A DNA stretch of 50,563 bases from the NCBI GenBank assembly GCA_009838765.1, contig VXQX01000009.1, forward strand, positions 1 through 50,563, written 5' to 3'. This document shows positions 4,390-50,357 of the stretch, in pieces. The translations under genes were made by a program, and so were the position numbers. How positions within the stretch are numbered: position 1 is the first letter of the stretch; each line of letters starts with the position of its first letter. The notes below the pieces were generated by a model. It was not told the DNA's origin and made no database searches. It saw only the letters and a program-made list of their open reading frames with translations. The DNA is from Gemmatimonadales bacterium (GTDB taxonomy: Bacteria; Gemmatimonadota; Gemmatimonadetes; Palauibacterales; Palauibacteraceae).

Positions 4390-4462
4390 GCTTACGTGGT
4401 CGGCGGTCCGTGCCGAGAACCTTCAACCAAGCCCGGCGACGTCAGGCCGGCCTGACCTGACC

Positions 4463-6034: not shown

Positions 6035-6047
6035 CCGCCGCCGGCTG

Positions 6048-7028
6048 ATGCGGATCTGCATCTACGGGGCCGGCGCGATCGGGGGATACCTCGGCGCGCA
6101 GCTTTCCCTCGCGGGTCGAGACGTCACCCTCATCGCGCGCGGCCCCCACCTGAAGGCGATGCAACAACACGGCGTGCGGCTGCTGATCGACGGCGAGGAG
6201 CGTGTCGCGCACCCGGTCTGCACGGACGATCCGTCGGAGGCGGGGCCTCAGGACTACGTGATCGTCACGCTCAAGGCGCATTCCGTCCCCCGGATCGTGG
6301 AGCCGATGCGGCCGCTGCTCGGGCCCGACACCGCCGTCGTCATGGCGACGAACGGTCTCCCGTGGTGGTACTTCTACGAACTCGAGGGACCGTGGCGGGA
6401 CCGCCGGCTCGAGAGCCTCGACCCCGACGGCGTGCAGTGGGACGGGATCGGTCCGGAACGCGTGATCGGCTGCGTGGTGTATGCGGCCACCGAGGTGTCG
6501 GAACCCGGCGTCATCCGGCACCTGAAATACAACCGGTTCACGCTCGGCGAGCCCAGCGGCGAGAAGACCGAACGCGTGCGGCGGCTCGCGAAGGCGATGA
6601 TCGAAGCCGGCTTTCGGGCTCCGGTCCGGGGGATCCGGAACGAGATGTGGGTGAAGCTGTGGGGGAACCTCGCCTTCAACCCGATCAGCGCGCTCACGCT
6701 GGGGACGCTGGGGACCATAGCCGGAGACCCCGACACGCGCGCGGTCGCGAAGGCGATGATGCTCGAAGGACAGGCCGTGGCCGAAGCCCTGGGCGCCCGC
6801 TTTTCGATCGACATCGAGCGGCGAATCGAGGGGATCGCGGCCGTGGGCGAGCACCGTACCTCGATGCTGCAGGACCTCGACAAGGGTCGTCCGATGGAGA
6901 TCGACGCCCTCGTCACGGCGGTCCAGGAGATGGGGCGCATGGTCGACGTCCCCACTCCCACGATCGACGTGGTCCTCGCCCTCGTCCGCCAGCGCGCCCG
7001 CATCGCCGATGCCTACCCTCCGGGCTAG
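6048..7028 (+). CDS. 2-dehydropantoate 2-reductase family protein
   Basis: 326 residues, normal for the PanE/ApbA family. The Rossmann NADP-binding motif GAGAIGGYLG lies at residues 7-16. The family motif MWVKLWGNLAFNPISALT contains the catalytic-lysine and asparagine region, and the C-terminal helical domain has the typical DLDKGRPMEID. Canonical PanE reduces ketopantoate to pantoate in coenzyme A synthesis. No other pantothenate genes are nearby and the family includes enzymes acting on other 2-oxo acids, so the substrate is uncertain. It lies 13 bp after a CoA ligase gene and 32 bp before an amidohydrolase gene on the same strand, probably one transcript. Confidence 0.85.
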   Translation: MRICIYGAGAIGGYLGAQLSLAGRDVTLIARGPHLKAMQQHGVRLLIDGEERVAHPVCTDDPSEAGPQDYVIVTLKAHSVPRIVEPMRPLLGPDTAVVMATNGLPWWYFYELEGPWRDRRLESLDPDGVQWDGIGPERVIGCVVYAATEVSEPGVIRHLKYNRFTLGEPSGEKTERVRRLAKAMIEAGFRAPVRGIRNEMWVKLWGNLAFNPISALTLGTLGTIAGDPDTRAVAKAMMLEGQAVAEALGARFSIDIERRIEGIAAVGEHRTSMLQDLDKGRPMEIDALVTAVQEMGRMVDVPTPTIDVVLALVRQRARIADAYPPG

Positions 7029-7060
7029 AACCTGAGCGTCACGACGAGCGACCCGATTCC

Positions 7061-8635
7061 ATGAGCCCTGACCTGGTCATTCGCGGCGGTCTGGTGTTCG
7101 ACGGTACGGGGGCGGAGCCGGTCAGGGCCGATGTGATCGTTCACGAGGGCTGGATTACCCACGTGGGTGCCGTCGAGGCGGAAGCGGCCACGGAGCTGGA
7201 CGCCCGCGGTCTCGCCGTCGCGCCCGGCTTCATCGACGTCCACAGCCACTCCGACTACACGCTACTCGTGGACCCGCGGGCGGTCAGCGCCATCCACCAG
7301 GGCGTGACGACGGAGGTCATCGGCAACTGCGGTCATGGCTGCTTTCCGATCAGGGATGCGGAGTTGTCGAGCCGCATCATCTACGGCTTCGACGGCAGCC
7401 TGCCGCTGGACTGGTCCACGCCCGCCGCCTATCTGGATCGGCTCGAGGAGGCCGCACCCGCCGTCAACGTCATGACGCTGGTCCCGAACGGGCAGCTGCG
7501 CCTGGCCACGCTGGGACTGGAGGGCCGTCCGGCGACGGACGACGAAGTCGCGGCCATGACGCGGCTGCTGGAGGAGGGGCTGGAGGCGGGCGCCTGGGGC
7601 TACTCCACGGGTCTGGAGTACGCGCCGGAGCAGGGCGCCGGGGAGGCGGAGATCACGGAACTCGCCCGGGTCGCGGCGCGGCGGGGCGGCTTCTACGCGA
7701 CCCACACGCGGGAGCGCGAGGACCGCGCCGACGAGGCGGTGGCCGAGGCGATTCGCACGGCACGCCACGCGGGCATCCGACTCCAGGTTTCCCACCTCGC
7801 CCCCAGAAGCGGGCCCGACCAGACGAACCGCTGCATCGACCTTGTGGACGCCGCCAGAGCCGCGGGCGACGACATCGCGTTCGACATGCACACCCGGCTC
7901 TACGGCCTGACCGTCCTCCATGCCATGCTCCCGCCACAGGTGCTGAAGGCGGGTCCGGAGGATCAGGCGCGGCTGCTCCGGACGCCTGAAGGCCGGGCGC
8001 AGATCGGCGACCACAAATCCATCATCACCGGGCTCGGGGACTGGGGCCGGATCTACCTCGTCGACAACGAGGTCTGGCCGGACATGGCACGTCTCGACTT
8101 CGAGGAGATCGCGCGCCGCCGGGGCACCACCGCCCTCGACGCCGCCTGCGACCTGCTGCTCGACAGCGTGGGCGCCGGGAAGGCGCCGATGGTGCTCCTC
8201 CGCGCCTATTCGGAGGATCAGCAGGAGGACGTCTTCTCCCATGAACTCTGCGTGCCGGCCTCCGACGCCACGGCGCTCGCCCTGAACGGACCGCTTGCGG
8301 GCGCCTCCTTCATGGGCGCCTACACGTGGGCCTCCTGGTTCTGGCGCTTCATGGTCCGGGAGACGGGTCGGCTCACGCCCGAGGAGGCGGTGTATCGGCT
8401 CAGCGGCCTGCCGGCGGAGATCGTCGGCCTCCCGGATCGGGGTCTGCTCAAGCCGGGCATGCGCGCCGATGTCGTCGCGTTCGAACCGGAGACGTTTGCC
8501 GACACCGGCACCACCTTCGAACCCAACCGGCTCGCGACGGGCATGCGCCACGTCGTGGTCAACGGCACCGTCACCCTTCGCGACGGGGCCCTCACCGGCG
8601 AACGGGCCGGCGCCGTGCTGCGAAAAGGGGCTTAG
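7061..8635 (+). CDS. N-acyl-D-amino-acid deacylase family amidohydrolase
   Basis: 524 residues. The metal-binding HSHSD motif is near residues 61-65, preceded by the typical amidohydrolase entry APGFIDV. The GNCGHGCFP segment near residue 88 matches the Cys-containing metal site of D-aminoacylases, and later histidine segments THTRERED and QVSHLAP supply further ligands. The C-terminus returns to the beta-sandwich (GMRADVVAFEP). Expected activity is hydrolysis of N-acyl-D-amino acids or related cyclic amides in the cytoplasm. No signal peptide is seen. The ATG at 7061 is chosen because it begins exactly at the conserved LVIRGGLVFDGTG strand. Its stop lies 6 bp from the stop of convergent hyuB. 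Confidence 0.87.
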   Translation: MSPDLVIRGGLVFDGTGAEPVRADVIVHEGWITHVGAVEAEAATELDARGLAVAPGFIDVHSHSDYTLLVDPRAVSAIHQGVTTEVIGNCGHGCFPIRDAELSSRIIYGFDGSLPLDWSTPAAYLDRLEEAAPAVNVMTLVPNGQLRLATLGLEGRPATDDEVAAMTRLLEEGLEAGAWGYSTGLEYAPEQGAGEAEITELARVAARRGGFYATHTREREDRADEAVAEAIRTARHAGIRLQVSHLAPRSGPDQTNRCIDLVDAARAAGDDIAFDMHTRLYGLTVLHAMLPPQVLKAGPEDQARLLRTPEGRAQIGDHKSIITGLGDWGRIYLVDNEVWPDMARLDFEEIARRRGTTALDAACDLLLDSVGAGKAPMVLLRAYSEDQQEDVFSHELCVPASDATALALNGPLAGASFMGAYTWASWFWRFMVRETGRLTPEEAVYRLSGLPAEIVGLPDRGLLKPGMRADVVAFEPETFADTGTTFEPNRLATGMRHVVVNGTVTLRDGALTGERAGAVLRKGA

Positions 8636-28463: not shown

Positions 28464-28526
28464 CCCCGCCACGCGCGGACCATAACAGAGAGCACATCAT
28501 CTTCCATGGCCCGAGGAGGATTTCGT

Positions 28527-28870
28527 ATGATCGATATCCTGGCGGACTCGCCAGACGACGAGGCGCTCATCGCCGAGGCCGTCGGCAGCGACGCACGCGT
28601 CGTGAGCGGTTCCTTGCCGTTCGCGAACGGCGATGTCGAGTGTCCGATCCTGGGTTGTCGCGAGCGCCGTAGCCAACCGCCTGGAACTCAGCCGCCAGAC
28701 CCTCCGCACAGCCGGTGTTGAGCCCGAGCAGGCAGCCGCTTCTGACTCCGAGTAACGCCGACGGCTTATCACTTTTTGACAGATCTCATCAATTTCAATC
28801 TAGTTTTGGCTCGGCAGAACCCCCTACGCTCCGAGCGTGCCGGCGGCACCGCGGCCTCGTAAGCAGGGAA
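28527..28870 (+). pseudogene. Deleted copy of the AraC-like regulator gene
   Basis: From GGCCCGAGGAGGATTTCGTATG onward (ATG at 28527) this is nearly identical to the intact gene at 32657-33562 for the first 45 codons. The sequence then jumps at 28663/28664 from CGCGAG (equivalent to about 32800) to CGCCGTAGC (about 33259), and again near 28710-28730 to the 3' part (about 33412). About 460 bp and 100 bp are therefore missing, which removes the first helix-turn-helix. The remaining frame shifts and stops at TGA 28719-28721. The homologous tail continues to the CCTCGTAAGCAGGGAA stretch at 28854-28869. A 65-residue residual product could be made but would have no DNA-binding domain. Confidence 0.75.
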
Positions 28871-28932
28871 GGTGTCAGGCCACAACGGGTTTGGGGGACT
28901 TGTAAATGCCGGAAACAAGAAGGAGGAAAACC

Positions 28933-29190
28933 ATGTCCCGGGACAGGATCAAGAAGTTGCTGTGGTGGTCGTTACTCGTACCGGTACTGTTAGTAGTGGG
29001 GATGGTGGCTGCCGAGGCGGTAACCCCGAGACCTGTGGCCGCCGCAGCGTGCGAGGATAACTCATGCAAGTATCACACTAGCGGTGGCCGATACTGTTGG
29101 GATGGCGATGGCAGCAATTGCGACGCGACGTGGAAATGCGTTTGGTTTCTCTGCGGCCCTGCTTGTGAAGAGACGCCCTGCATATCTTGA
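28933..29190 (+). CDS. Small cysteine-rich exported peptide (peptide A)
   Basis: 85 residues. The ATG at 28933 has a perfect AGGAGG 6 bp upstream. A basic N-terminus (DRIKK) and a long hydrophobic stretch (LLWWSLLVPVLLVVGMVAAE) end at an alanine-rich VAAAA site, so the mature part would begin at or near CEDNSC. The remaining about 46 residues contain eight cysteines with spacing C-4-C-9-C-7-C-5-C-4-C-3-C-4-C, plus several Trp/Tyr/Gly, fitting a compact disulfide-bonded peptide. Clearly related to peptide B downstream. The size, leader and neighbour (6-bladed propeller) recall NVEALA-type peptides of Bacteroidota, though no NVEALA motif is present. Function unknown. Confidence 0.75.
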   Translation: MSRDRIKKLLWWSLLVPVLLVVGMVAAEAVTPRPVAAAACEDNSCKYHTSGGRYCWDGDGSNCDATWKCVWFLCGPACEETPCIS

Positions 29191-29258
29191 CCCACGGAAC
29201 GCAGGGAAAAGCGAGATTCCGCGGACACCAATCGAATCGAACTGCAAGGAGGACCATG

Positions 29259-29513
29259 ATGTTACAAAAGACGGGCAAGTTGCTCCGATGGGTTTGGGTA
29301 GTTCCGGTTCTAATGCTGCTGAGCATATTTGCGGGCTCAGCGGTCGGCGCGCGGGAGTTGGTGGCCGCAGGTTGCGAATACGATGTTTGTCAGTATGACC
29401 CACGGCCCGATGTCGAAGTCTGTACCGATACACGTGGCGACATAGGCAAGAACTGCAGAATAATGGACGGAGCCTGCTGGGAGTCGAACTGCCGTCCCGG
29501 TCACTTGTGGTGA
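29259..29513 (+). CDS. Small cysteine-rich exported peptide (peptide B)
   Basis: 84 residues from ATG 29259 (AAGGAGG 6 bp upstream; the adjacent ATG at 29256 is only 3 bp away). The leader KLLRWVWVVPVLMLLSIFAG and the border VAAGCEYDVCQY match peptide A (VAAAACEDNSCKY), so the two are paralogues. The mature part has six cysteines with spacing C-4-C-10-C-10-C-6-C-4-C and ends RPGHLW. The stop overlaps the start of the propeller lipoprotein gene (GTGGTGA), which indicates translational coupling of peptide and propeller. It may be a substrate, ligand or partner of that propeller; no enzyme for leader removal or modification is seen. Confidence 0.75.
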   Translation: MLQKTGKLLRWVWVVPVLMLLSIFAGSAVGARELVAAGCEYDVCQYDPRPDVEVCTDTRGDIGKNCRIMDGACWESNCRPGHLW

Positions 29514-30658
29514 CCCTCCGCTTCGGTCGCGCGCCCTTATCCTATTTGGCGGGCGTCTGCCTCGGCGTCGCGTTCGGCGGGTGCGCAGATTCGAGCCCGG
29601 TGATCCATCCGCTGCCGGCAGCGCTGGCGGACTTGGAGCGGCTGGCCACGGCAGTGATCTCTCCAGATACCGTTCCTCCACCGACGATGGGCCGCGACGC
29701 CGCTACCCGCTGGGTCGCCATGCGTCGCGCGATCCTGGATGCTCGTCCGGGAGTGATCATCGGCGCGCTCGAGGGCGATGGCCCGGATGTCTTATCCAGT
29801 TGGAATCTGGCGTCCTTAGGCCGCGCGGGCGAGCTGTATGTCCTCGACGCCATGGCCGCCAGAGTGGTAGTTTTCGACTCTGTCGGCGGGGTGACGACAT
29901 GGTTCGGGCGTGTCGGAGACGGACCGATGGAGTTACGAGATCCGACCGATTTCGTGGTGGCGCAAGATTCCATTCTCATCCTCCACGATGGAGGCATAAA
30001 GGTGTTCGAACGAGGGTCCTCTGGATACGAACTGCAGGCGACGCTCGACCTCGATGCCGATCTCGTACTTGCATCCTCCTTCTGTCGTGCTGGAGCGTCG
30101 ATCTTCTTGAACGCGGACGGATCGGCGGCGACGATCAGGGCACTCCGACCCGGAGAGGCACCGAACCGTTTCGGACAAGGATACGAATATGGCTCGGCAG
30201 ATGCGAGAAACGCCTTATCACGCGGCTCGGTTGGGTGTATGGATGGCGTCGTCGTTTACGGGAGTCAATACCTGCCCGCTCTGTACGGCTATACGCCGAG
30301 TGGCGAACTTGTATGGTCGGCGATTCTATCTGATCACCTGCAAGGATATTTACTTCAGCATCCGAACGCCATCCGATTTCCGACTCCTCCGCGGGACGCC
30401 CTGAAGAGTATTGAGAAGGGACCGGATCGCTATGTTCTGCTTGCCTACTCTCGCAGATACGACCAAACTCGTACCATTACCCGAACCTATCTCGTCGATG
30501 CCGCTACGGGGGAGGGTGCGCTGCTGGAACAGAGCGAACGTCGCCAGGACATACTGGCCGTTCATGGTACTCGGCTCGTGCGATGGCTTCCCGGAGAGTA
30601 TCCAAGACTGAGAATATGGCATATGGACCCGACTACCTTGCCAATGCCCGGTCCGTGA
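29507..30658 (+). CDS. 6-bladed beta-propeller-like lipoprotein 1
   Basis: 383 residues from GTG 29507 (GTG 29510 is equally possible; both overlap the peptide B stop). The lipobox in GVAFGGCADSS (Cys about 26) indicates lipid anchoring. The body shows beta-propeller blades typical of the 6-bladed family, for example GELYVLDAMAARVVVFDSVG and WFGRVGDGPMELRDPTDFVV. It shares with the following protein the blocks DTVPPPTM, AMRRAIL-ARPG, WFGR-GDGPMELR, TGEG and RIWHMD. Translationally coupled to peptide B. Probably an envelope binding protein; ligand unknown. Confidence 0.8.
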   Translation: MVTLRFGRAPLSYLAGVCLGVAFGGCADSSPVIHPLPAALADLERLATAVISPDTVPPPTMGRDAATRWVAMRRAILDARPGVIIGALEGDGPDVLSSWNLASLGRAGELYVLDAMAARVVVFDSVGGVTTWFGRVGDGPMELRDPTDFVVAQDSILILHDGGIKVFERGSSGYELQATLDLDADLVLASSFCRAGASIFLNADGSAATIRALRPGEAPNRFGQGYEYGSADARNALSRGSVGCMDGVVVYGSQYLPALYGYTPSGELVWSAILSDHLQGYLLQHPNAIRFPTPPRDALKSIEKGPDRYVLLAYSRRYDQTRTITRTYLVDAATGEGALLEQSERRQDILAVHGTRLVRWLPGEYPRLRIWHMDPTTLPMPGP

Positions 30659-30752
30659 GTCGTCATATTCCCATCTTGTTTGGGATCCCGACAGGGCACA
30701 GTCTCTCCCGGACCGACCTACGGTCGTTGTGATGGAGGGCAGGCGATAAACC

Positions 30753-31874
30753 ATGTACCGTGCGGCGGGCGTGATCACTTTCCTCGCAGCGACAGTCGCC
30801 GGGTGCGGCGATTCGCGCCGTGTCCACCACCCGCTTCCGGAAGCAATCGCGGAGTTGGAGCGTGAAGCCACGACCGTGATCCTTCCGGACACCGTACCGC
30901 CGCCGACAATGAACGCCGAAAAGGCGGCCCGCTGGATAGCTATGCGTCGGGCCATCTTGGCCGCACGTCCGGGAGCCACGATAGGTACCTTGGACCGCGA
31001 CGGACCGGAATTGCTGGGTTCAATACTCCGCGTCAAACTCGCTCACGACGGCGAGATACTGATTCTGGATTCAATGAACGGAAGGGTGGTGGCGTTTGGC
31101 TCTGACGGGACGACCAAAACGTGGTTCGGCCGACTCGGCGATGGTCCAATGGAGCTTCGAACGGCTCGAGACTTGGAACGTTATGGCGACTCGCTGTTTG
31201 TGGCGCAGTCAGGTCTCCTGAAAATATATGGTCGAACTCACCGTGGTTACGAGTGGAGAGGCGAAATGCCTCTGCCGGTCGAGATTAACTCGATCTGCGT
31301 TCTTGCGAGTGGTATCTTTGGCATCACATTAGGAGCACCGGCGACGGCCGTGCGCAGGCTGTCGGTGTTCGGGGAGAACGACCTTGCGTTTGGACGAGGT
31401 TACACGCATGGGTGGGAGTTCGCCCAGCGTCGATTGTCGACAGGTCTCGGCACGTGTGTCGGAACTCCGGCACGAATAATCCACGGCTTCGAAGAACTCC
31501 CGGCGCTGCGTGCCTACAGTCCTTCGGGCGTTATTCAGTGGTCCGCGACGTTCAAGGATTACTGGCAGGGCTACTGGATCGAGACGCCTGGACGAGCGTC
31601 GCTGCAGTCGCCGATGCCACCCCACGAGATTCTCATGGGATTGGACGTGATCGGTAGAGGATTCGTGGTGGCAACGTACTTGCGAGTCGATCAGCGAGGG
31701 GAATTCATGACGAGAGCGTATTTACTGGATGCCGAAACCGGTGAGGGAGGGCTGGTGGAGGAAACAACTCGTCCAGACCGACAAATTATGGCGGCCGGAC
31801 GTCATCAGTACGTGACATACATTCGAGGACTATATCCCCGGTTCAGAATCTGGCACATGGATGAGTTGCGATGA
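30753..31874 (+). CDS. 6-bladed beta-propeller-like lipoprotein 2
   Basis: 373 residues, paralogous to propeller lipoprotein 1 over its whole length. It has a short leader with lipobox ATVAGCGDS (Cys about 18), then HHPLPEAIAELE, DTVPPPTMN, DGEILILDSMNGRVVAF and WFGRLGDGPMELR, and closes with YLLDAETGEGGLVEE and RFRIWHMD. It follows its paralogue after 94 bp with no peptide gene in between, and overlaps the thioredoxin-fold gene by 4 bp (ATGA), so those two are coupled. A tandem duplication in which only one copy keeps adjacent cysteine-rich peptides suggests that the propellers bind or display different partners. Confidence 0.8.
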   Translation: MYRAAGVITFLAATVAGCGDSRRVHHPLPEAIAELEREATTVILPDTVPPPTMNAEKAARWIAMRRAILAARPGATIGTLDRDGPELLGSILRVKLAHDGEILILDSMNGRVVAFGSDGTTKTWFGRLGDGPMELRTARDLERYGDSLFVAQSGLLKIYGRTHRGYEWRGEMPLPVEINSICVLASGIFGITLGAPATAVRRLSVFGENDLAFGRGYTHGWEFAQRRLSTGLGTCVGTPARIIHGFEELPALRAYSPSGVIQWSATFKDYWQGYWIETPGRASLQSPMPPHEILMGLDVIGRGFVVATYLRVDQRGEFMTRAYLLDAETGEGGLVEETTRPDRQIMAAGRHQYVTYIRGLYPRFRIWHMDELR

Positions 31875-32512
31875 CGAAGAATAATATCTCTCGTTGGACC
31901 GTGATTGGTACCGTGCGAAAATATCGGTGGCAAATCGTTGCGTCGACGCTACTCGTCATAATGGGGGGCGGCATCGGCTATTGTCGGTTGTTACCGATGT
32001 CGTTGCCACGCATCTCTGTTGCGTGGGATGCTTACGCGGAGAGGAGGCAATATCGTCCCGCGCTGAGGCTGCGGGAAGGACGGGAATTGTTGTTGGTGGC
32101 CATCGTGTCGTCGAACTGTTATTGGTCGAACCTGCCGGAGACGATCCAAGCGGTGCGGTCGGCAAAGCAACTCCTGGCAAACCAGGCGGCGACAAACGAG
32201 ATGGGATTCGCCGCGATGGGAGTGGCCCGGGACATGGTGGCAGCGTCTGGAATCGAACACTTGGCGCGGCATGGCGCGTTCGACGAGGTGATATCGGGCC
32301 GTAGCTGGATCAACAGCGGTGTCTTGCAGTTCATCTACAATGACGAGATTCCGGGGTTCGCGGGAACTCCGCAGGTGGTTGTATTGGAACAAACGGTCTT
32401 GTTCGAGGGTGGATCTCGACGCATCACGGGACGTCGTGAACTCGAACGAAAGCTGGGGCCGACGGAGATCGCGGCATGGGTGGACGCTGGTGCGCCACTG
32501 GATTTCGATTAG
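31871..32512 (+). CDS. Membrane-anchored thioredoxin-fold protein with CxxS site
   Basis: 213 residues. One N-terminal membrane segment (about 20-40, IVASTLLVIMGGGIGY) would place the rest outside the cytoplasm. The segment LLLVAIVSSNCYWSN (about 75-90) sits where thioredoxin-like TlpA/DsbE proteins have their beta strand and CxxC, but it reads CYWS, a CxxS monothiol variant. The GTPQVVVLEQT block (about 165) matches the cis-proline loop. The assignment comes from this pattern, not from strong identity. Being coupled (ATGA) to propeller lipoprotein 2, in an operon with disulfide-rich peptides, it may act in disulfide isomerisation or peptide binding. Less GC-rich than the flanking genome. Confidence 0.65.
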   Translation: MTKNNISRWTVIGTVRKYRWQIVASTLLVIMGGGIGYCRLLPMSLPRISVAWDAYAERRQYRPALRLREGRELLLVAIVSSNCYWSNLPETIQAVRSAKQLLANQAATNEMGFAAMGVARDMVAASGIEHLARHGAFDEVISGRSWINSGVLQFIYNDEIPGFAGTPQVVVLEQTVLFEGGSRRITGRRELERKLGPTEIAAWVDAGAPLDFD

Positions 32513-32535
32513 GGATGATTCAACTGGGCGCCACC

Positions 32536-32567
32536 GTCCCCCTTTTTCGGGGGGCACCTGTCAGGTG
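32536..32567. terminator. Candidate terminator: two small hairpins
   Basis: GTCCCCC/GGGGGGC (32536-32542 with 32549-32555) forms a GC stem around a T-rich loop, followed at once by CACCT-GTC-AGGTG (32555-32567). It lies 24 bp after the thioredoxin-fold gene and upstream of the regulator gene. No T tract follows, and an operator for the regulator is also possible. Confidence 0.4.
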
Positions 32568-32656
32568 ATTACCGTATCAGAACACGGAGAGGAACCATGC
32601 GGCCTGAGGCGCACCGGAGGGGCGCATCATCCCGCGTGGCCCGAGGAGGATTTCGT

Positions 32657-33562
32657 ATGATCGATATCCTGGCGGACTCGCCAGACGACGAGGCGCTCAT
32701 CGTCGAGGCGGTCGGCCGCGACGCACGCGTCGTGAGCGGTTCCTTGGCGTTGGCGAACGGCGACGGCGATGTCGAGTGTCGGATCCTGGGTTGTCGCGAG
32801 CCGATTCCGCTTGTACGAATCGAACTCCTGCGAAAGATGGAGCGTAACACGCCGTCGGTTCCGGTCATCCTCGTGACAGATCGCGCGGCCGAGGTCGCCC
32901 GCCAGCTGAGCGGCGTCAAGGTGGCGGCCATCGTCTGGTTCGCCGACCTCCGAAACCAACTCACGCCCGCAATCACCGCCGCCAGGCAATCGGTCCCGCT
33001 ACTGCGCCTGGCGGAACAGGCGGAGGAAGCGGAGCTGCCCCCGGCCCTTCGATCCGGACTGGCATACAGCTACCGCGCCGCGTCCCAACGACCCGTGCGC
33101 AATGTGAAGGAGTTGGCCGCCGCCGTTTCCTGCTCCCCCACCACCCTTTCCAAGGAGTTCCGGGAGCGCGCCGGCGGGGCGGCAAACCTGAGCCAGTTCC
33201 TCAGCGCTCTCTCGGTCGTGAAGGCCCACCAGCTTCGTCTCTCGGGTCTGAGTTGGGACGCCGTAGCAAACCGCATGGAGGTCAGCCGCCAGACGCTCCA
33301 CAACAGGTCGGCCCGCTGGCCGGGAGGCACACTCAAGCAGCTCGCGCGGATCCGTCAGGCCCCGCTGCTCAAGAAGTTCTTCGCGGATTTCGCGCAGCCG
33401 TTGTTGATTCCGAGCCAGCCACCGCTTCTGACTCCGAGTAGCGCCGACGGCCTATCACTTTTGGACAGAGTCTACCGATTCCAATCTAGTTTAGCTCGGC
33501 AGAACCCCCCAGACTCGGGCGTGTCGGCGACACACCGGCCTCGTAAGCAGGGAAGACGTTAG
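32657..33562 (+). CDS. AraC-like transcription regulator with degenerate receiver domain
   Basis: 301 residues from ATG 32657, which has GAGGAGGA 6 bp upstream. Residues 1-115 look like a response-regulator receiver (MIDILADSPDDEALIVEAV, VPVILVTDRAAEVA), but the strand expected to hold the phosphoacceptor Asp reads RILGCREPIPLVRIELLRKM, with no Asp there. Two helix-turn-helix units follow: VKELAAAVSCSPTTLSKEF (about 149-167) and LSWDAVANRMEVSRQTLHN (about 198-216), the AraC-type pair. The C-terminal 80 residues are a proline/arginine-rich tail. A gutted copy lies at 28527. It probably regulates the island genes. Confidence 0.75.
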   Translation: MIDILADSPDDEALIVEAVGRDARVVSGSLALANGDGDVECRILGCREPIPLVRIELLRKMERNTPSVPVILVTDRAAEVARQLSGVKVAAIVWFADLRNQLTPAITAARQSVPLLRLAEQAEEAELPPALRSGLAYSYRAASQRPVRNVKELAAAVSCSPTTLSKEFRERAGGAANLSQFLSALSVVKAHQLRLSGLSWDAVANRMEVSRQTLHNRSARWPGGTLKQLARIRQAPLLKKFFADFAQPLLIPSQPPLLTPSSADGLSLLDRVYRFQSSLARQNPPDSGVSATHRPRKQGRR

Positions 33563-33588
33563 TCCGCAACGGATTCGATGGGGCGTCA

Positions 33589-34653
33589 ATGCCTGGAATA
33601 CATTTGAGCTCACGACGAAACCGGTTGTTCGGCTGCGTGCTGCCGGTCGTTTTCCTCGCTCCCGTTTCGGTGATCGGACAACAGAGCGGACCGGACGCAC
33701 GCGGGGACCGAGTCGACGACAACCATCGGCTGTGCTTGTCCCAGCTTGGTGAGTCACCTCTCCCCGCTGACTTCGAGTTCGTCGGCCTCACCGTATCCGA
33801 GGCCGCCGCGGCCGATCCCGTCATTACCATGTGGTCTCGTTCCGAGTTGCTCGTCGAGAAGTTGTCAGCCGATTCGGCCAATGCGGTGACGGAAGCTGTG
33901 GCGCGAATACCGTTGAAGGACGTCACTCCTCTCTCGGCCGCACTCGTCGCCTGGGAAGATGGCAAACCCGTCATGGAGTTGTTCGACCCGCGAAACGGCA
34001 ACATTTGGACGGGAAACGGAACCGACGGGGAGTTCACGCGAACTTCTGCACCGCCCGGTTCCGCCGTCGCGTCTGGCGCGATCAGAGATGAGTCCGGCTG
34101 GGCGTGGGCGCAGAAAAGCCTCGACCCCGTGGCGGATACCACGCGAATACTGGTCTCCGCAGGAGGTCGAGCCAGGACACCGGACCAGCTGACAACCCTC
34201 CGGCGGCCGGACGAACCGCAACGGGGAATCGACCGACTTCTACACCTGCGGTCGGATGGAAACGACGGCTACTTGGTCCAGCAGGCCGGATTTCCGTTTG
34301 CAACGATCCGATTTGGCCAGGAAAATGAGGAATCTTGGCGGACTTATCCAAGTCCGGATGAACTGCGGGATGTTCTGGGGGAAACCGATCTCCGTTACGT
34401 GATTGCTACCCCGTCCGTGGCTCTTGGGGACGCGGTTCTCACCACATTCGTGGCGGCTCGATCGCCTCACCGGGTCTCCTCCCTGACCTTTGGGCGCGGG
34501 GAATCCACGAGGTATCGCGCTGTCCCCGATGATCTGGCGTTTCTGACCGCTCTTCCCAAACACAAACTTCTGATAGCTACGCGAGCTGCGGTTTCTCGGC
34601 GACTCGTTTTCGTTCGTTGGCGCTGGATCGACCAGCGCCAGACGTGCTCCTGA
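33589..34653 (+). CDS. Exported protein of unknown function
   Basis: 354 residues. A signal peptide is clear (RRNRLFGCVLPVVFLAPVSVIGQQ). The rest is rich in short beta-strand-like blocks, for example ALVAWEDGKPVMELFDPRNG, GYLVQQAGFPFATIRFG and AVLTTFVAARSPHRV, compatible with a divergent beta-propeller, but I do not recognise a family. It starts 26 bp after the regulator gene and is 24 bp upstream of the cysteine-rich protein, so it belongs to the same transcript. Its position matches that of peptide A in the first half of the island, although the sequences are unrelated as far as I can see. Confidence 0.65.
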   Translation: MPGIHLSSRRNRLFGCVLPVVFLAPVSVIGQQSGPDARGDRVDDNHRLCLSQLGESPLPADFEFVGLTVSEAAAADPVITMWSRSELLVEKLSADSANAVTEAVARIPLKDVTPLSAALVAWEDGKPVMELFDPRNGNIWTGNGTDGEFTRTSAPPGSAVASGAIRDESGWAWAQKSLDPVADTTRILVSAGGRARTPDQLTTLRRPDEPQRGIDRLLHLRSDGNDGYLVQQAGFPFATIRFGQENEESWRTYPSPDELRDVLGETDLRYVIATPSVALGDAVLTTFVAARSPHRVSSLTFGRGESTRYRAVPDDLAFLTALPKHKLLIATRAAVSRRLVFVRWRWIDQRQTCS

Positions 34654-34677
34654 ACCCTCTCCGGAAGGAGAATCACG

Positions 34678-35151
34678 ATGACCATGCCCGACTTTCTCTC
34701 GATCACGCTTCGCGCCACGGGCACCAAGGCGTTGCTCGGACTGTCTGCGGTCATGTGCGTTGCCTTGCTCGTGCCAAGCTCTGCGAAGGCCCAGTCGTGC
34801 CTCGAGTGCGGGTGGTACTACAGCGAGTATGATGACCCGATGGTTGATTGTCTCGTTACGTTCTCTGGGGGAAACTGGTGCATGCTCCGCACCGACTTCC
34901 GTGACTGTGAGAGCGGGCGCGGTTGCTGGGATCTGGCGCAACTGGACTTCTCCGAGGACGGCGCCGCTTATCGCCGGGAGGGCGACGACTTGCTTATGCA
35001 CGACGGTGGGGACCGGCACGTGAGGGGTCGAGAGGTCGAGCGGACGTGCGACGGAGTGCTGTTGGGCACTCGCGTGGCCGCGAGACGACCGTCGTCACCT
35101 GATCGTAGCATGGCGGATGGGCGCAACGTTCTACTCACGCTGGAGCTATGA
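34678..35151 (+). CDS. Cysteine-rich exported protein (peptide C)
   Basis: 157 residues from ATG 34678, with AAGGAG 7 bp upstream. The leader (ALLGLSAVMCVALLVPSSAKAQS) is a signal peptide. The mature N-terminal half has six cysteines in about 45 residues (CLECGWYYSEY, then DCLVTF, NWCMLR, DCESGRGCWD) with many aromatic residues, like peptides A and B. An additional half (about 80 residues, one Cys in RTCDGVLLG) has no counterpart there. The stop overlaps the start of the following propeller gene (ATGA), the same peptide-propeller coupling as in the first half of the island. Function unknown. Confidence 0.7.
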   Translation: MTMPDFLSITLRATGTKALLGLSAVMCVALLVPSSAKAQSCLECGWYYSEYDDPMVDCLVTFSGGNWCMLRTDFRDCESGRGCWDLAQLDFSEDGAAYRREGDDLLMHDGGDRHVRGREVERTCDGVLLGTRVAARRPSSPDRSMADGRNVLLTLEL

Positions 35152-36371
35152 GTCGGATCCAGATGGGTGTTTGGCTAACCGTGACCGGCATCCTGCATTC
35201 CATGAGGATGTGGCTCATCACAACCGCGTTTGCGTTCAGTCCGCTCGCTGTGGTTGGCCAACCCGTCACGGACGACGATCCTTTTCGTGGCGAACCGCTC
35301 GGCCTTCGTCCGCAAGTGGAGATCCGCGCGATGATCGACGGAGGTCCGGAACTGACGATGCCCCGGAGCGTGTTGGCCGACTCGCTCCACATATACGTGC
35401 TGGATCCCGCCTCTTTCGGCGTCCACCGGTTTGACCGGGCCGGCGCATGGCTGAGTACGATTGGCGCGGAGGGCGACGGCCCAGGTGAGTTCCGGCGTCT
35501 CGACGGCATGGGTTGGCGGTCCGACACTCTCTGGGTGTCCGACGGCCGCCTCGCCCGGCTGTCATTCTTTGATCGCGACGGTGTGCTTCTTCGGTCCGTC
35601 CGGCTCAGCGTGGCCGACGGTTCGGTTAGCTGGCGTCCATCGGGCGTCTTGGGCGCGCGTATTACCGGTTCCTTTGGCCTTTCGCCGGACCTCGCAGCTG
35701 CGACGGATTCCATCCCGATAGCGGTGTTTGACGAGGACGGGACGGTCGCCGATACGCTGGCGTGGCGGATCACGGGGAGGGGGGTCGTCTCCTTTCGCAC
35801 CGCGTCGCGACAGAGCTCACTTCAGTATCCGTTCGACCGGCGCGGCTTGATGGCGTTCGATCCGAGGAGACGGTGGCTGTACCTGGCGACGTGGCGAGTT
35901 GGCGCGACCGGCGCGGATCGCCTTGAGTTGGTTCGCATCACTGCGGCCGGGGACACGGCTGCCAGGATGACGCTGCCGCTCGGACGGATCCCGGTCTCGG
36001 CGCGTGACGTACGATCCTATGCGCGAGCCCAGTACGAAGAGAGGCCCGAACGGATGCGCTCGGGACTCTCGGTCGAAGATATGGTCCAGGCGTTTCTTCG
36101 ACACCACGAGAATCCGAGCGAGACTCACGTGGACGCGATGATCGCAAGTGAGGAGGGAACTCTGTGGCTGCGTAAGACCGACCGTACCGCGGATGGAGCG
36201 CCGCAACGGTGGGCTGGTTACGAGCCTGATGCGGGGTTCCTGGGATTCGTGCAGTTTCCGCCGGGTCACCAACTGCTGGCGGCCGCGGACGGACTGCTAT
36301 GGACCAGGGGCGAGGGCGCTTTCGGGTTGCCGACAATCACGGGGTGGGAGATAGCGAGGCGGACTCCGTAG
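35148..36371 (+). CDS. 6-bladed beta-propeller-like exported protein 3
   Basis: 407 residues. The N-terminal hydrophobic region (about 8-40) ends in PLAVVGQPVTDDD, so it is exported; there is no lipobox. Blade-like strands recur: SLHIYVLDPASFGVHRFDRAG, GEGDGPGEF-type turns (here GAEGDGPGEFRRLDGMGW) and RLARLSFFDRDGVLLRSV. This is the pattern of the 6-bladed propeller family common beside small exported peptides. It is translationally coupled to the cysteine-rich protein upstream (ATGA). A hairpin follows 15 bp after the stop. Confidence 0.78.
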   Translation: MSRIQMGVWLTVTGILHSMRMWLITTAFAFSPLAVVGQPVTDDDPFRGEPLGLRPQVEIRAMIDGGPELTMPRSVLADSLHIYVLDPASFGVHRFDRAGAWLSTIGAEGDGPGEFRRLDGMGWRSDTLWVSDGRLARLSFFDRDGVLLRSVRLSVADGSVSWRPSGVLGARITGSFGLSPDLAAATDSIPIAVFDEDGTVADTLAWRITGRGVVSFRTASRQSSLQYPFDRRGLMAFDPRRRWLYLATWRVGATGADRLELVRITAAGDTAARMTLPLGRIPVSARDVRSYARAQYEERPERMRSGLSVEDMVQAFLRHHENPSETHVDAMIASEEGTLWLRKTDRTADGAPQRWAGYEPDAGFLGFVQFPPGHQLLAAADGLLWTRGEGAFGLPTITGWEIARRTP

Positions 36372-36551: not shown

Positions 36552-36600
36552 TGCCGGGGGGTCCGTATCCCAGTCTTGGGGGAGATGCGGAGATTTGAGA

Positions 36601-37674
36601 GTGTCTGATCCCAGATCGGTGAGGCGGTTGGTGGCACGGCGGTTCGCTTGGAGCCTCGTTGCGGCGTGGGGGCTTGCCGGCGGCGCCGGGGCTCTCTCGG
36701 CGCAGGAGCAGGATTGCGGGGATCGGGCGAGCTTGCGGGTCCGTGTCGTTGACGACGACGGCGCGGCCTCGGTCCCCGACGCGGTGGTGGTGGTGCGGTG
36801 GACCGAGGCCGAGCGCGCGCGAAGGCCGGTGCGCGAGGCGGCCGGAGGCGATGGACGCCTCGTCCTCTGCGCTCCAAGGGATGCCACCCGGGCCACGCTC
36901 TGGGCGGAGCACGGGAACTCTTCGAGCGAGGAGGCGGTCGTCGCCATCGTGGCGGGGATGTCCCACGACATCACGCTCATGCAGCGCTCCGGGCCGGTCA
37001 GGACCGGCAGGCTGATCGGTCAGGTGCACGACGCCGTAACGGATGATCCGGTGGCTGCCGCCACGGTGTTCGTTCCCGACCGGCTGCGGGTGGCCGAGAC
37101 GGACCGCCAGGGGCGGTTCGTCCTGAGCGGCGTTCCGGTCGGGACGCAGGAACTCAACGTGCGCCACCTCGGGTACGCGCCGCTGTCCTATGTGCTCGAG
37201 GTCTCCCCCGGTCTCACCACGGAGGTGGAGATCGGCATGGTCCCCGATCCGGTGGAGATGGCGCCGATCGTGGCGACGGCGACGCGGTCTCGCCGGCTGG
37301 AGGTCCAGGGCTTCTACGAGCGCAAGCTCTGGAGCGACGTGGTCGGCGCGGGCACCTTCTACACGGCGGAAGACATCGATCGCCGCCGGCCGGTGCAGAT
37401 CTCGCAGATGATCGCGGACGAGTCGGGAATCCGGCTTCAGTGCGGCGCCCGGCGTACCGACTGCAGGCTGGTGAACTCGAGGCTGTCGTCCGGGGTCACG
37501 GGCGCCTGTTCGCTGAGCTTCTATGTCGATGGTCTGCCGACGCGGGGGGTCGCGCTGGACGATATGGTGAAGCCAAGCGAGATCGCGGGCATCGAGATTT
37601 ACAAGGGGCTGGGGTCGGGTCCGGCGGAGTTTCCGCCTTCCCGGTGCGGCCTCGTCGCGGTCTGGACGAGATGA
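36601..37674 (+). CDS. Carboxypeptidase-regulatory-like / TonB plug-only exported protein
   Basis: 357 residues from GTG 36601 (GGAGA 7 bp upstream; a TTG at 36595 is the alternative). The signal peptide ends near GALSAQEQD. Residues about 130-215 form a CarboxypepD_reg-like beta-sandwich (GQVHDAVTDDPVAAATVFVP, TDRQGRFVLSGVPVGTQEL). Residues about 250-355 resemble a TonB-dependent receptor plug (LSFYVDGLPT and MVKPSEIAGIEIYKG). The protein ends where an outer-membrane barrel would begin, so it is a plug without a barrel, a type I have seen in this phylum. The function is unknown. It is the first gene outside the island. Confidence 0.82.
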   Translation: MSDPRSVRRLVARRFAWSLVAAWGLAGGAGALSAQEQDCGDRASLRVRVVDDDGAASVPDAVVVVRWTEAERARRPVREAAGGDGRLVLCAPRDATRATLWAEHGNSSSEEAVVAIVAGMSHDITLMQRSGPVRTGRLIGQVHDAVTDDPVAAATVFVPDRLRVAETDRQGRFVLSGVPVGTQELNVRHLGYAPLSYVLEVSPGLTTEVEIGMVPDPVEMAPIVATATRSRRLEVQGFYERKLWSDVVGAGTFYTAEDIDRRRPVQISQMIADESGIRLQCGARRTDCRLVNSRLSSGVTGACSLSFYVDGLPTRGVALDDMVKPSEIAGIEIYKGLGSGPAEFPPSRCGLVAVWTR

Positions 37675-47150: not shown

Positions 47151-49180
47151 GACGCGGAATGACTCGGTGCCCGCACCTACCCGGTCTGCGCCGACGCGAT
47201 CTGCGCCGTCGCGGGTTACGCGGCGCGGCGCCCTGTGCGTTGGCGCTCGCGGTTTCGGCCTTCCTCCCCGTGGGCTCGGCCGCGCAGGAGGAGGCGTCGT
47301 CCTCCTCCTCTCCCTCCGGCCGCCTGCTGGACGCGGCGCGCGACGGGGCGGCGGAGGTCGTGCGCGCGCTCGTGGGAGACGGTGCGGATGTGAACGCGGC
47401 GCGGGGCGACGGGATGACCGCGCTGCACTTTGCCGCCGAGCGCGGCCACGCGGCGGTGGCCCGGGCGCTGATCGGTGCGGGCGCGGCCGTCGACGCCGGG
47501 ACGCGGATCGGTCGCTATGCGCCGCTGCACCTGGCCGCCCGCGGAGGGCACGGGCCCGTCGTCGCGCTCCTGCTCGAGGCCGGGGCCGACGCGAACGCCG
47601 CGACGACGAACAGCGGCGTGACCGCGCTGCACCTCGCCGCCGCCGCCGTGGACGGCCGGCCGGCCGTGGCCGCGCTGCTCGACCACGGCGCCGATCCGAA
47701 CGCCCGGGAGGGGTCGGCGGGGCAGACGCCGCTGATGTTCGCCGCCGCCGCGAACCGGCCAGCCGCCGCGGCCGCGCTGCTCGAGGCCGGCGCCGACCCC
47801 GGCATCGCGACCGCCGTGGTCGACGTCCTGCCCAGCCTGGCGCTGGACCGGGAGGCCAACCGCCGCATGCGCGCCATGATCGGCGCCCCGCGGGAAACGC
47901 TCGGCCCGTACGGGCCCGAGGTGGACCCCGAAGCCCAGTGGCCGGGCGAGCCGAGCCCGGCCCAGGTGCAGGCGGCCATCCGCGCCCAGCGCGAGTTCCT
48001 CCGCTCCGGCTTTGACGTCGGCGACGTGAGCGCCCATTCGCTGGGCCGCGTGGGGCCCGACTACCCTGGCGGCCCCGACCTCATCCGTCCGCCGTACCGG
48101 GAGGTGCTCGTCGGCCGAACCGGCGGCATGACCGCGCTGCTGCACGCAGCCCGCGAGGGCCATATCGAGGCGGTGACGGCCCTTCTCGACGGCGGCGCGG
48201 ACATCGACCAGGCGAGCGCGGACGCCACGAGTCCGCTCCTCATGGCGGCGCTCAACGGCCAGTTCGACCTGGCGCTCAGCCTCATCGAGCGCGGGGCCGA
48301 CCCGGACCTCGCCGCATCGACCGACGGGGCCACACCCCTCTTCGCCGTCCTCCAGACGCAGTGGGCGCCGAAGTCCAACTACCCGCAGCCGCGCGCGCAG
48401 GACCTGCAGGTCGCCGGGCACATGGACGTGCTCCGCGCGCTGCTCGACGCTGGCGCGGATCCCAATCCCCGCCTGAACACGCACCTGTGGTACTGGGAAT
48501 ACGGCCTCACGAAGATGGGGATCGACCTCACGGGGGCGACGCCGTTCTGGCGGGCGGCCTTCGCCCAGGACCTCGAGGCGATGAAGCTGCTCGTCGCGCA
48601 CGGCGCGGATCCGCACATCCCGACGCGCTGGCCCGAAGTCGGGATGCGCGAGCGGCGGCAGCAGGATGGCCGGCAGCAGGAGGACTCGGCCCTGCCCTGG
48701 ATCCCGGAGGGCGCGCCCAACGCGTGGCCGATCCACGCGGCGGCGGGCGGCGGGTACCTGGGTCTCGGCGCGTTCAGCGTCCGCAACCGGCCGGACCAGT
48801 TCATCCCTGCCGTAAAATACCTGATCGAGGAACTCGGCGCGGACGTCGACCAGCGCGACTCCTGGCTCTACACGCCGATGCACTACGCCGCCTCGCGCGG
48901 CGACAACGAACTCATCGAATACCTCGTCTCGCAGGGCGGGGATGTCGCCGCGATCACCCGCCTCGGGCAGTCCACGGCGGACATGGCGCGCGGCGGCCGG
49001 GCCGGGTTCTTCACCCGCGTCCCGTACCCGGAGACGGTCGAGCTGCTGACGAGTCTGGGCGCGACGCTGGAGTGCCTCCACACGCACTTCCTCGACACCG
49101 GCGACTCGTGTCCCGCCGCCGGCATCGACGACCCCTGGGCCCCTGCGCGGACAACCACCGAGGAGAGAAAACGTGGCTGA
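47147..49180 (+). CDS. Exported ankyrin-repeat protein (second copy)
   Basis: 677 residues. A long arginine-rich n-region precedes the hydrophobic signal (APCALALAVSAFLPVGSAAQ). The ankyrin clusters mirror those of the 2608-4389 protein: GDGMTALHFAAERGHAAVAR, GQTPLMFAAAANRPAAAAAL, GGMTALLHAAREGHIEAVTA, GATPFWRAAFAQDLEAMKLL and TPMHYAASRGDNELIEYL. A serine-rich stretch follows the signal. It lacks the internal CSGC of the first copy but keeps cysteines near the C-terminus (ECLHTHFLDTGDSC). It overlaps the DUF1552 stop (ATGA). The NHL-protein gene overlaps its end, so the operon has four genes. Confidence 0.9.
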   Translation: MRRGMTRCPHLPGLRRRDLRRRGLRGAAPCALALAVSAFLPVGSAAQEEASSSSSPSGRLLDAARDGAAEVVRALVGDGADVNAARGDGMTALHFAAERGHAAVARALIGAGAAVDAGTRIGRYAPLHLAARGGHGPVVALLLEAGADANAATTNSGVTALHLAAAAVDGRPAVAALLDHGADPNAREGSAGQTPLMFAAAANRPAAAAALLEAGADPGIATAVVDVLPSLALDREANRRMRAMIGAPRETLGPYGPEVDPEAQWPGEPSPAQVQAAIRAQREFLRSGFDVGDVSAHSLGRVGPDYPGGPDLIRPPYREVLVGRTGGMTALLHAAREGHIEAVTALLDGGADIDQASADATSPLLMAALNGQFDLALSLIERGADPDLAASTDGATPLFAVLQTQWAPKSNYPQPRAQDLQVAGHMDVLRALLDAGADPNPRLNTHLWYWEYGLTKMGIDLTGATPFWRAAFAQDLEAMKLLVAHGADPHIPTRWPEVGMRERRQQDGRQQEDSALPWIPEGAPNAWPIHAAAGGGYLGLGAFSVRNRPDQFIPAVKYLIEELGADVDQRDSWLYTPMHYAASRGDNELIEYLVSQGGDVAAITRLGQSTADMARGGRAGFFTRVPYPETVELLTSLGATLECLHTHFLDTGDSCPAAGIDDPWAPARTTTEERKRG

Positions 49181-50357
49181 CGGCTCGAAGCGTCCGGCAG
49201 GATTGTGCCGCCCGCCAGGGCACTTGTTCGCCATTGCGGCGGCAGCCTTCGCGACCGTCTCCTGGGCGTGCGGCGGCGAGGGCCGGGCCGCGGACACGGC
49301 GAACGGCGCCATCGTCAAGGGCGGGGACGACCGCACGGGGCCCTACGATCCCGTCGCGGGCTGGTGGAAGGGCGCGCCCGACCATGACGAGGAGTGGGGC
49401 TGGGGGCAGGTGGCCGGCGTCGCCGTGGACCACGCGGACCGCATCATCGTCGTGACGCGAGGCGACTGGCCCGCCGACCGGTCGGCCGCCCGCGGGGACC
49501 GGTTGCGCCGTACGAACTACATCGTCGTCGCGAACGGGAACGGGGAGATCGTGGAACAGTGGGCCCAGTGGGACTCGCTCTTCACCCTCCCGCACCAGGT
49601 GTACATCAACCCCTACGACCCCGACCGGCACGTGTGGGTGGTCGACAGCGGCGGCGGGGAGGGGCACATGCAGGTCGTCAAGTTCACCAACGACGGCAGC
49701 GAGATCGCCCTGCGCCTCGGCGAGCGCGATCACCCGAAGACGCGCGAAGCCGCCCGCGCCCGGGACGACTGGGGACCCTACACCTACGGCTGGCCGTCCA
49801 AGCTCGCGTTCCTCCCGGACGGGAGCTTCCTGCTCGCCGACGGGTACTGGAACTCGCGGATCATCAAGTATTCCGAAGACGGAGAGTTCATCATGCAGTG
49901 GGGCGCGCTCGGCACCGGACCCGGCGAGTTCGATCTCCTGCACGGCCTCGCGGTGGACGAGGAGCGCGTCTACGTCGGGGACCGCCAAAACGAGCGCCTC
50001 CAGCTGTTCACGCACGACGGCGAGTTCATCGAGGAATGGCCGAACATCTTCGATCCCGTGAACATCTGGCTCGACGAGCACGGCGCCGTGTGGGTCCTGG
50101 ACGCGTCGCTGAACCGCATCCTGAAGTACGACCGGGACGGCGTCCTCCAGGACTACTGGGGCGCCTACGGAGCGGCCGGCGCCCTCGGGCGGGGGACCTG
50201 GCCCGGCGGCCTCTCGCTGCCGCACCAGATGGACATGGACGTGGACGGCAACCTGTACATCGCCTCCTACAGCGGCGGCTGGATCAACAAGTTCACCCCG
50301 AAGCCGGACGCGGACCCGGACCGGCTCCTCGGCCCGCGGCTCCTGCTGACACACTGA
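49173..50357 (+). CDS. NHL-repeat beta-propeller lipoprotein
   Basis: 394 residues from GTG 49173, which overlaps the ankyrin stop by 8 bp; GAGGAGAG precedes it. A hydrophobic leader ends in a lipobox-like VSWACGGEG (Cys about 33). Propeller blades with NHL character recur: GQVAGVAVDHADRIIVVTRG, HVWVVDSGGGEGHMQVVKF, GSFLLADGYWNSRIIKYSE, GPGEFDLLHGLAVDEERVYV and GAVWVLDASLNRILKY. The architecture resembles peptidyl-alpha-hydroxyglycine alpha-amidating lyase propellers, but lyase activity is not established. Only the second DUF1592 operon carries this gene. Confidence 0.88.
   Translation: MADGSKRPAGLCRPPGHLFAIAAAAFATVSWACGGEGRAADTANGAIVKGGDDRTGPYDPVAGWWKGAPDHDEEWGWGQVAGVAVDHADRIIVVTRGDWPADRSAARGDRLRRTNYIVVANGNGEIVEQWAQWDSLFTLPHQVYINPYDPDRHVWVVDSGGGEGHMQVVKFTNDGSEIALRLGERDHPKTREAARARDDWGPYTYGWPSKLAFLPDGSFLLADGYWNSRIIKYSEDGEFIMQWGALGTGPGEFDLLHGLAVDEERVYVGDRQNERLQLFTHDGEFIEEWPNIFDPVNIWLDEHGAVWVLDASLNRILKYDRDGVLQDYWGAYGAAGALGRGTWPGGLSLPHQMDMDVDGNLYIASYSGGWINKFTPKPDADPDRLLGPRLLLTH

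What the first reader, a model, noticed from the sequence alone, without database searches (positions are those of the whole stretch)
28933..36371. Candidate undescribed exported peptide system: cysteine-rich peptides coupled to beta-propellers
Twice in the island a cysteine-rich exported protein is translationally coupled (GTGGTGA or ATGA overlaps) to a 6-bladed propeller (lipo)protein (29259-30658 and 34678-36371). An AraC-like regulator heads each half, and a CxxS thioredoxin-fold protein is coupled to the second propeller. Small peptides next to 6-bladed propellers are known as NVEALA-type loci in Bacteroidota; these peptides lack that motif and have their own leader (KLL-W--VPVL) and Cys pattern. 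The combination suggests secreted disulfide peptides displayed, bound or sensed by the propellers.
Basis: partly seen in the sequence, partly recalled or inferred. Interest (0 to 1): 0.78.

Follow-up and report, generated by a model that had tools for sequence, protein, structure and literature searches.

The report
Exported cysteine-peptide, propeller and thioredoxin operon
Several groups of environmental bacteria share an undescribed gene cluster that makes small exported six-cysteine peptides together with a propeller-shaped lipoprotein and a membrane-tethered thioredoxin-like protein, probably a system for making and handling disulfide-bonded peptides whose purpose is still unknown.

Summary
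The first half of the finding (28933-32512) is real and larger than claimed. Two paralogous Sec-exported six-Cys peptides, two six-bladed propellers and a CxxS thioredoxin-fold protein form one operon with overlapping genes. A peptide profile (Cx4C..C..C..Cx4C, consensus CExDxC...CxTYxC) plus a search driven only by the thioredoxin-like protein recovered the same three components in Gemmatimonadota and Rhodothermales. Of 74 non-redundant loci, 59 have enough upstream sequence: 52 have a propeller, 41 the peptide, 39 both. Propellers without that thioredoxin protein almost never have such a peptide (2/34 against 40/56, p=3e-10). Some loci also carry a DsbA-like oxidase or a signal peptidase I. 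Neither the peptide nor the thioredoxin-like family matches Pfam; NVEALA (PF14055) does not match. The second half (32657-36371) is a different module (regulator, unknown protein, 157-aa Cys-rich protein, propeller), conserved in two sister genomes but not homologous to the peptides. The regulator heading the first half is a deleted remnant. Best reading: an exported disulfide-peptide system in which the thioredoxin-like protein handles the peptide's thiols and the propeller binds it. The biological purpose (signal, antagonism, other) is unresolved.

The parts
28506..28721 (+). Remnant of the AraC-like regulator (5' end about 95% like 32657 onward, then internal deletions)
   Evidence: DNA alignment with the intact copy; REG hits 1e-18 and 2e-9
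28733..28919 (+). Leader region upstream of peptide A, 84% identical to 33422-33575 upstream of the second module
   Evidence: Search of the own genome with this DNA: only these two copies
28933..29190 (+). Peptide A: Sec signal peptide plus Cys-rich mature part (8 Cys, six in the family frame)
   Evidence: Family profile; orthologue in G038, 44% identity, same order
29256..29513 (+). Peptide B: Sec signal peptide plus six-Cys mature part (Cx4C..C..C..Cx4C)
   Evidence: AF2 model pLDDT 76.6 with four short strands
29507..30658 (+). Propeller lipoprotein P1 (PF17170) with N-terminal HP box (IHPLPAALADLE)
   Evidence: Pfam 27.4 bits against cut-off 22.9; HP box
30753..31874 (+). Propeller lipoprotein P2, paralogue of P1, HP box HHPLPEAIAELE
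31871..32512 (+). Membrane-anchored thioredoxin-fold protein, single active-site Cys (C83-Y-W-S86), T-P-Q motif at 166-168
   Evidence: AF2 pLDDT 87.9, Foldseek TlpA/ResA/DsbE-type folds, homologues
32657..33562 (+). Intact AraC-like regulator; homologues in G040 (L143), G027 (L058) and, as a 3' fragment, G034 (L281)
   Evidence: Weak HTH hits
33589..34653 (+). Exported protein of unknown fold, first gene of the second module
   Evidence: Same gene order in L281 and L282; no Pfam match
34678..35151 (+). 157-aa exported Cys-rich protein of the second module; not a relative of peptides A/B
   Evidence: Homologues in G034 (41%, E 6e-13) and G031 (38%, E 3e-7)
35148..36371 (+). Propeller of the second module (P9), ATGA overlap with the Cys-rich protein
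   Evidence: Weak PF17170; homologues E 1e-94 to 1e-98 in L281/L282

Best explanation
28933-32512 is one member of a widespread, undescribed operon type for exported disulfide-rich peptides. The peptide is exported by Sec and its signal peptide removed (inferred from the sequence; a signal peptidase I is encoded in the operon of some relatives). In the envelope its six cysteines form disulfides. The membrane-anchored thioredoxin-fold protein, with one conserved catalytic Cys (CxxS), takes part in this thiol chemistry, probably as a mixed-disulfide holdase or isomerase for the peptide, in some relatives together with a DsbA-like oxidase. The propeller lipoprotein, possibly with the thioredoxin domain, forms a docking site that binds the folded peptide, comparable to the Trx/NHL-propeller cleft of NHLRC2. 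Shown: conserved linkage, gene overlap, Cys frame, signal peptides, predicted thioredoxin fold. Inferred: thiol chemistry on the peptide, peptide-propeller binding. Unresolved: whether the peptide is a signal, a toxin with the propeller as immunity, or an envelope component.
For: Same-strand peptide-propeller-Trx clusters in Gemmatimonadota and Rhodothermales. A peptide profile trained only on Gemmatimonadota found peptides in 10 of 14 Rhodothermales/Bacteroidota-labelled loci fetched by the Trx protein alone. Of 59 non-redundant Trx loci with at least 2.5 kb upstream, 52 have a propeller, 41 a peptide, 39 both. 79 of 80 peptides lie on the Trx strand. A Cys-rich exported small ORF is present in 40/56 Trx+propeller loci and 2/34 propeller-only loci, p=3e-10. 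Thirteen loci have the 4-bp PROP/TRX overlap. DsbA-like proteins (Thioredoxin_4 over cut-off in the four scanned) lie inside or beside the operon in L149, L251, L252, L255, L256 and L257; Peptidase_S26 follows TRX in L059, L174 and L081. Trx fold. Trx and propeller distances correlate, r=0.65, Mantel p=0.001. NHLRC2 precedent (PMC6107167).
Against: Peptide and propeller distances correlate only weakly (r=0.18) and not beyond what the locus explains (partial r=0.06), so sequence gives no sign of specific peptide-propeller pairing. Some Trx loci show no peptide (L058, L184, L264, L278) or no propeller (L134, L138). Trx-fold proteins without the second Cys may have no redox activity. No complex could be modelled. 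The peptide model has no PDB match.
Confidence: 0.6

Rival explanations
1. Inter-bacterial antagonism: the peptide is a secreted disulfide-rich toxin or bacteriocin, the Trx-like protein folds it and the propeller lipoprotein is the cognate immunity protein.
For: Patchy distribution (31/249, 9/148 genomes), several copies per genome with degenerate ones (G401), tandem divergent peptides with tandem propellers (L265-L268, L272), low-GC island in the window.
Against: No conserved dedicated outer-membrane exporter; orphan propellers of the same subfamily are common; no matched peptide-propeller divergence beyond the locus.
Confidence: 0.2
2. Envelope or cell-cell signalling: the peptide is a ligand or redox sensor read out by the propeller, tied to an AraC-like regulator.
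For: Regulator homologues head propeller operons in G027 and G040, and the leaders of both window modules are 84% identical.
Against: Among the loci examined, regulator homologues turned up only in the window's genus and are absent from other loci; the copy at the peptide operon is a remnant; no signal-transducing membrane partner is conserved.
Confidence: 0.2
3. Member or divergent branch of the NVEALA peptide/propeller loci of Bacteroidota.
For: Same layout as recalled from memory: small Cys-containing exported peptide beside a 6-bladed propeller.
Against: PF14055 hits none of the scanned peptide rows and no real NVEALA was found in 148 genomes of the Rhodothermales phylum; the Cys frame is the peptides' own.
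Confidence: 0.12
4. Small-subunit/propeller redox enzyme like methylamine dehydrogenase, with the Trx protein as a MauD analogue.
For: Cys-rich small protein + propeller + thioredoxin-like protein in one operon.
Against: No invariant Trp in the peptides and a different propeller family.
Confidence: 0.02

Closest known systems
NVEALA (PF14055) peptide / 6-bladed propeller loci of Bacteroidota
   Same: Small exported Cys-containing peptide beside a 6-bladed propeller (association recalled, not tested here)
   Different: No PF14055 match; six-Cys CExDxC..CxTYxC frame; dedicated CxxS Trx-like partner; other phyla
NHLRC2 / SOQ1 (Trx-like domain fused to NHL six-bladed propeller; PMC6107167)
   Same: Thioredoxin fold paired with a six-bladed propeller; the cleft between them is the proposed binding site
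   Different: Separate proteins here, CxxS instead of CCINC, and coupled to an exported six-Cys peptide; NHLRC2 homologues were reported without conserved operon neighbours
TlpA/ResA/DsbE-type thiol-disulfide oxidoreductases
   Same: Predicted fold and membrane anchoring
   Different: No Pfam match, mostly lacks the resolving Cys, carries a conserved FDE...W...TPQ signature
PF17170 (DUF5128) 6-bladed propellers
   Same: P1 matches above the cut-off; P2 and P9 weakly
   Different: Subset with an N-terminal HP box (HPTxENxP) and operon linkage to peptide and Trx

Membership tests
NVEALA (PF14055) | Match to the PF14055 profile / NVEALA motif | tested here: not met
   No PF14055 match at E<=0.1 among members of A5 and A9
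NVEALA (PF14055) | Adjacency to a 6-bladed propeller | tested here: met
   (shared layout only; not shown here for NVEALA itself)
PF17170 6-bladed propeller | Profile score over the gathering cut-off | tested here: met
   P1 27.4 bits against 22.9; P2 16.6 and P9 19.5 fall below it
Thioredoxin fold (TlpA/ResA/DsbE-like) | Thioredoxin fold | tested here: met
   AF2 pLDDT 87.9; Foldseek prob 1.00, E 3.6e-4, low TM-score 0.32-0.37
Thioredoxin fold (TlpA/ResA/DsbE-like) | CxxC redox motif | tested here: not met
   CxxS in the window; among scored loci S 38, A 8, C 8
NHLRC2/SOQ1 | Trx and NHL propeller fused, CCINC motif | tested here: not met
   Separate genes, C-Y-W-S (compared with PMC6107167)
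Methylamine dehydrogenase-type enzyme | Cofactor-forming Trp in the small subunit | tested here: not met
   No invariant Trp in peptide alignments
Bacteriocin/immunity pair | Antibacterial activity neutralised by the partner | not testable with these tools
   Needs expression and killing assays
Known anti-phage defence system | Match to PADLOC-DB models | tested here: not met
   No match for six window proteins

The most novel reading that the evidence does not exclude
A categorically new class of bacterial disulfide-peptide system: diversified exported six-Cys peptides, matured by a dedicated single-Cys thioredoxin-fold protein (sometimes with its own DsbA and signal peptidase) and recognised by HP-box propellers, used for communication or antagonism in Gemmatimonadota and Rhodothermota.
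Probability: 0.45. Interest if true: 0.88.

Novelty: new variant of a known kind. Interest (0 to 1): 0.72.

Why it matters
If right, it defines a family of exported disulfide microproteins with dedicated thiol chemistry in little-studied environmental phyla, gives a genomic handle (the GSSxCxxSN thioredoxin-like protein) for finding such loci, and gives a partner for a class of abundant, unexplained 6-bladed propellers. It also turns an open question, what the small peptides beside these propellers do, into a few direct tests.

Tried and rejected
Peptide profile of three sequences over the phylum gave mostly noise beyond the window's genus, but three weak hits beside propellers opened the census. 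Treating 34678-35151 as the same peptide family: rejected (different homologues and neighbours). Treating both regulators as intact: rejected. NVEALA: no profile match, and the two weak PF14055 hits in Rhodothermales-phylum genomes were unrelated genes. Methylamine-dehydrogenase analogy: no conserved Trp. Peptide-propeller co-divergence: weak, not beyond locus history. Peptide fold search: no match. First related-loci run with the 15-row Trx alignment failed for lack of conserved stretches. Mobile-element anchor: no tRNA in the window. Literature: nothing found under the terms tried (NVEALA, DUF5128, Gemmatimonadota + cysteine-rich peptides, small peptide + 6-bladed propeller) in an open-access subset only.
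Full report
What is in the window. The window is a whole contig (G000:C81) of a 3.6 Mb draft genome. Between about 28.5 and 36.4 kb lies an island of 56-65% GC in a 68-75% GC neighbourhood, with gene GC3 of 0.63-0.77 against 0.82-0.96 outside. It holds two modules. Module 1 (28933-32512) has peptide A, peptide B, propeller P1, propeller P2 and a thioredoxin-fold protein, with overlaps B/P1 (TTGTGGTGA) and P2/Trx (ATGA). Module 2 (32657-36371) has an AraC-like regulator, an exported protein of unknown fold, a 157-aa Cys-rich protein and a propeller (ATGA overlap). The leader of module 1 (28733-28919) is 84% identical to 33422-33575 in front of module 2, and these are the only two copies in the genome; the regulator in front of module 1 is a remnant with internal deletions.

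Peptide family. A and B are paralogues. A same-genus genome (G038) has the colinear operon: two peptides, two propellers and Trx, with peptide identities 44% and 33% in matching order against 34% and 27% crosswise, propellers 41-44%, Trx 61%. From propeller-centred neighbourhoods in Gemmatimonadota I built a peptide alignment with six invariant cysteines, Cx4C...C...C...Cx4C, typical consensus CExDxC...C...GC...CxTYxC, behind Sec signal peptides, many with AxA-type sites. No NCBIfam or Pfam family matches above noise, and no PDB chain. A model of peptide B has moderate confidence (pLDDT 76.6) and four short strands, without a structural match.

The third component. The thioredoxin-like protein turned out to be the best predictor of the system. 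It has no Pfam or PDB sequence match, but AF2 gives a confident thioredoxin-like fold with an N-terminal membrane helix, and Foldseek ranks TlpA/ResA/DsbE-type proteins first (probability 1.00, E 3.6e-4, TM-scores low at 0.32-0.37). The motif is GSSxCxxSN; the second CxxC position is Ser in 38, Ala in 8 and Cys in 8 of the loci where the pattern could be read.

Test of linkage. Searching 84,980 species genomes with the Trx alignment only returned 22 loci, including Rhodothermales, Fodinibius and one Acidobacteria draft. The peptide profile trained on Gemmatimonadota alone found peptides next to Trx in 10 of 14 Rhodothermales/Bacteroidota-labelled loci. A wider Trx search hit 31 of 249 Gemmatimonadota genomes, 9 of 148 genomes of the Rhodothermales phylum, and 1 of 111 genomes of the Acidobacteria phylum, the known one. 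After collapsing loci more than 80% identical in Trx, 74 remain; 59 have at least 2.5 kb upstream, and of these 52 have a propeller, 41 a peptide and 39 both. Several loci without a profile hit carry divergent exported Cys-rich peptides (L149, L151, L240, L249, L250, L274). With a rule that ignores the profile, such ORFs occur in 40/56 Trx+propeller loci and 2/34 propeller loci without Trx (p=3e-10; the rule also fires on the opposite strand in 11/56 and 1/34, so it has a false-positive rate). Seventeen propellers of the same subfamily without Trx had none. So the peptide goes with the Trx protein, not with propellers in general.

Accessory genes. A DsbA-like protein is interleaved or directly adjacent in L149, L251, L252, L255, L256 and L257 (Pfam Thioredoxin_4 above cut-off in L251, L252, L256 and L257), and a signal peptidase I follows Trx in L059, L174 and L081. 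Two locus types (L070-like and L073) have an insert of several kb between peptide and propeller; in L070 it encodes what looks like a TonB-receptor-type protein (by eye). These point to export, signal-peptide cleavage and disulfide formation of the peptide.

Propeller features. Many propellers of the system carry a short box soon after the signal sequence, HPTxENxP or variants (43/71 against 11/83 controls, most of the latter close subfamily relatives). A strict lipobox is found in 29 of 56, and many others have a relaxed one.

Evolution. In the Trx tree the window groups with G027 and G038 (100/100); phyla mostly cluster, with a few possible exchanges. Trx and propeller distances correlate (r=0.65, p=0.001); peptide distances correlate weakly (r about 0.2), and peptide-propeller not beyond Trx (partial 0.06). 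Genomes such as G401 hold up to nine Trx matches, some broken.

Interpretation. Shown: a conserved operon type, an exported six-Cys peptide family, a single-Cys thioredoxin-fold partner, propeller linkage. Inferred: the Trx protein acts on the peptide's thiols and the propeller binds the peptide; NHLRC2, where a Trx-like domain and an NHL propeller form a conserved cleft, is the nearest structural precedent (PMC6107167). Not resolved: the purpose. Antagonism fits the patchiness, tandem diversity and broken copies; signalling fits the regulator; neither is tested.

Limits. Most loci are from metagenome drafts. Profiles were partly trained on loci selected for propellers (the Trx-driven search and the profile-free rule are the checks). 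The literature library is open access only. NVEALA layout is from memory. No complex prediction was possible. Novelty is scored as a new variant because small peptides beside 6-bladed propellers are, as recalled, an annotated though unexplained association; the set of components described here was found in no library searched.

Noticed in passing
L240 (G000:C67) and L241 (G000:C91): The window's own genome has two further Trx/propeller loci, each with a different exported Cys-rich peptide (L240 662-886; L241 6675-6965).
   Followed up: partly
L143 (G040:C73) 4238-8567: The same regulator heads an operon with a 174-aa lipoprotein-like gene, two propellers and two other small Cys-rich exported ORFs (5685-5912, 5393-5638).
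   Followed up: partly
L281 (G034) and L282 (G031): Module 2 is conserved as unknown protein, Cys-rich exported protein, propeller; in L281 preceded by the regulator's 3' part.
   Followed up: partly
L251, L252, L255, L256, L257, L149, L160: DsbA-like protein overlapping or next to propeller or Trx genes, once (L160) beside a propeller without Trx.
   Followed up: partly
L059 3965-4669, L174 3875-4768, L081 7560-8201: Signal peptidase I gene directly behind, overlapping, the Trx gene.
   Followed up: yes
L069/L171 (G059): Peptide ORF with a C-terminal extension of about 150 aa behind the six-Cys part.
   Followed up: no
L096 7284-8459: A transposase-like gene (IS30-like by eye) sits between propeller and Trx.
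   Followed up: no
L164 1854-2120 (G074): Exported Cys-rich small ORF between two propellers without the Trx protein.
   Followed up: no
window 36595-37674: Protein with carboxypeptidase-regulatory-like domain and a sub-cut-off TonB plug match, no barrel, just downstream of the island.
   Followed up: no
window 49173-50357: Another propeller-like ORF near the contig end, unrelated to the island by position.
   Followed up: no
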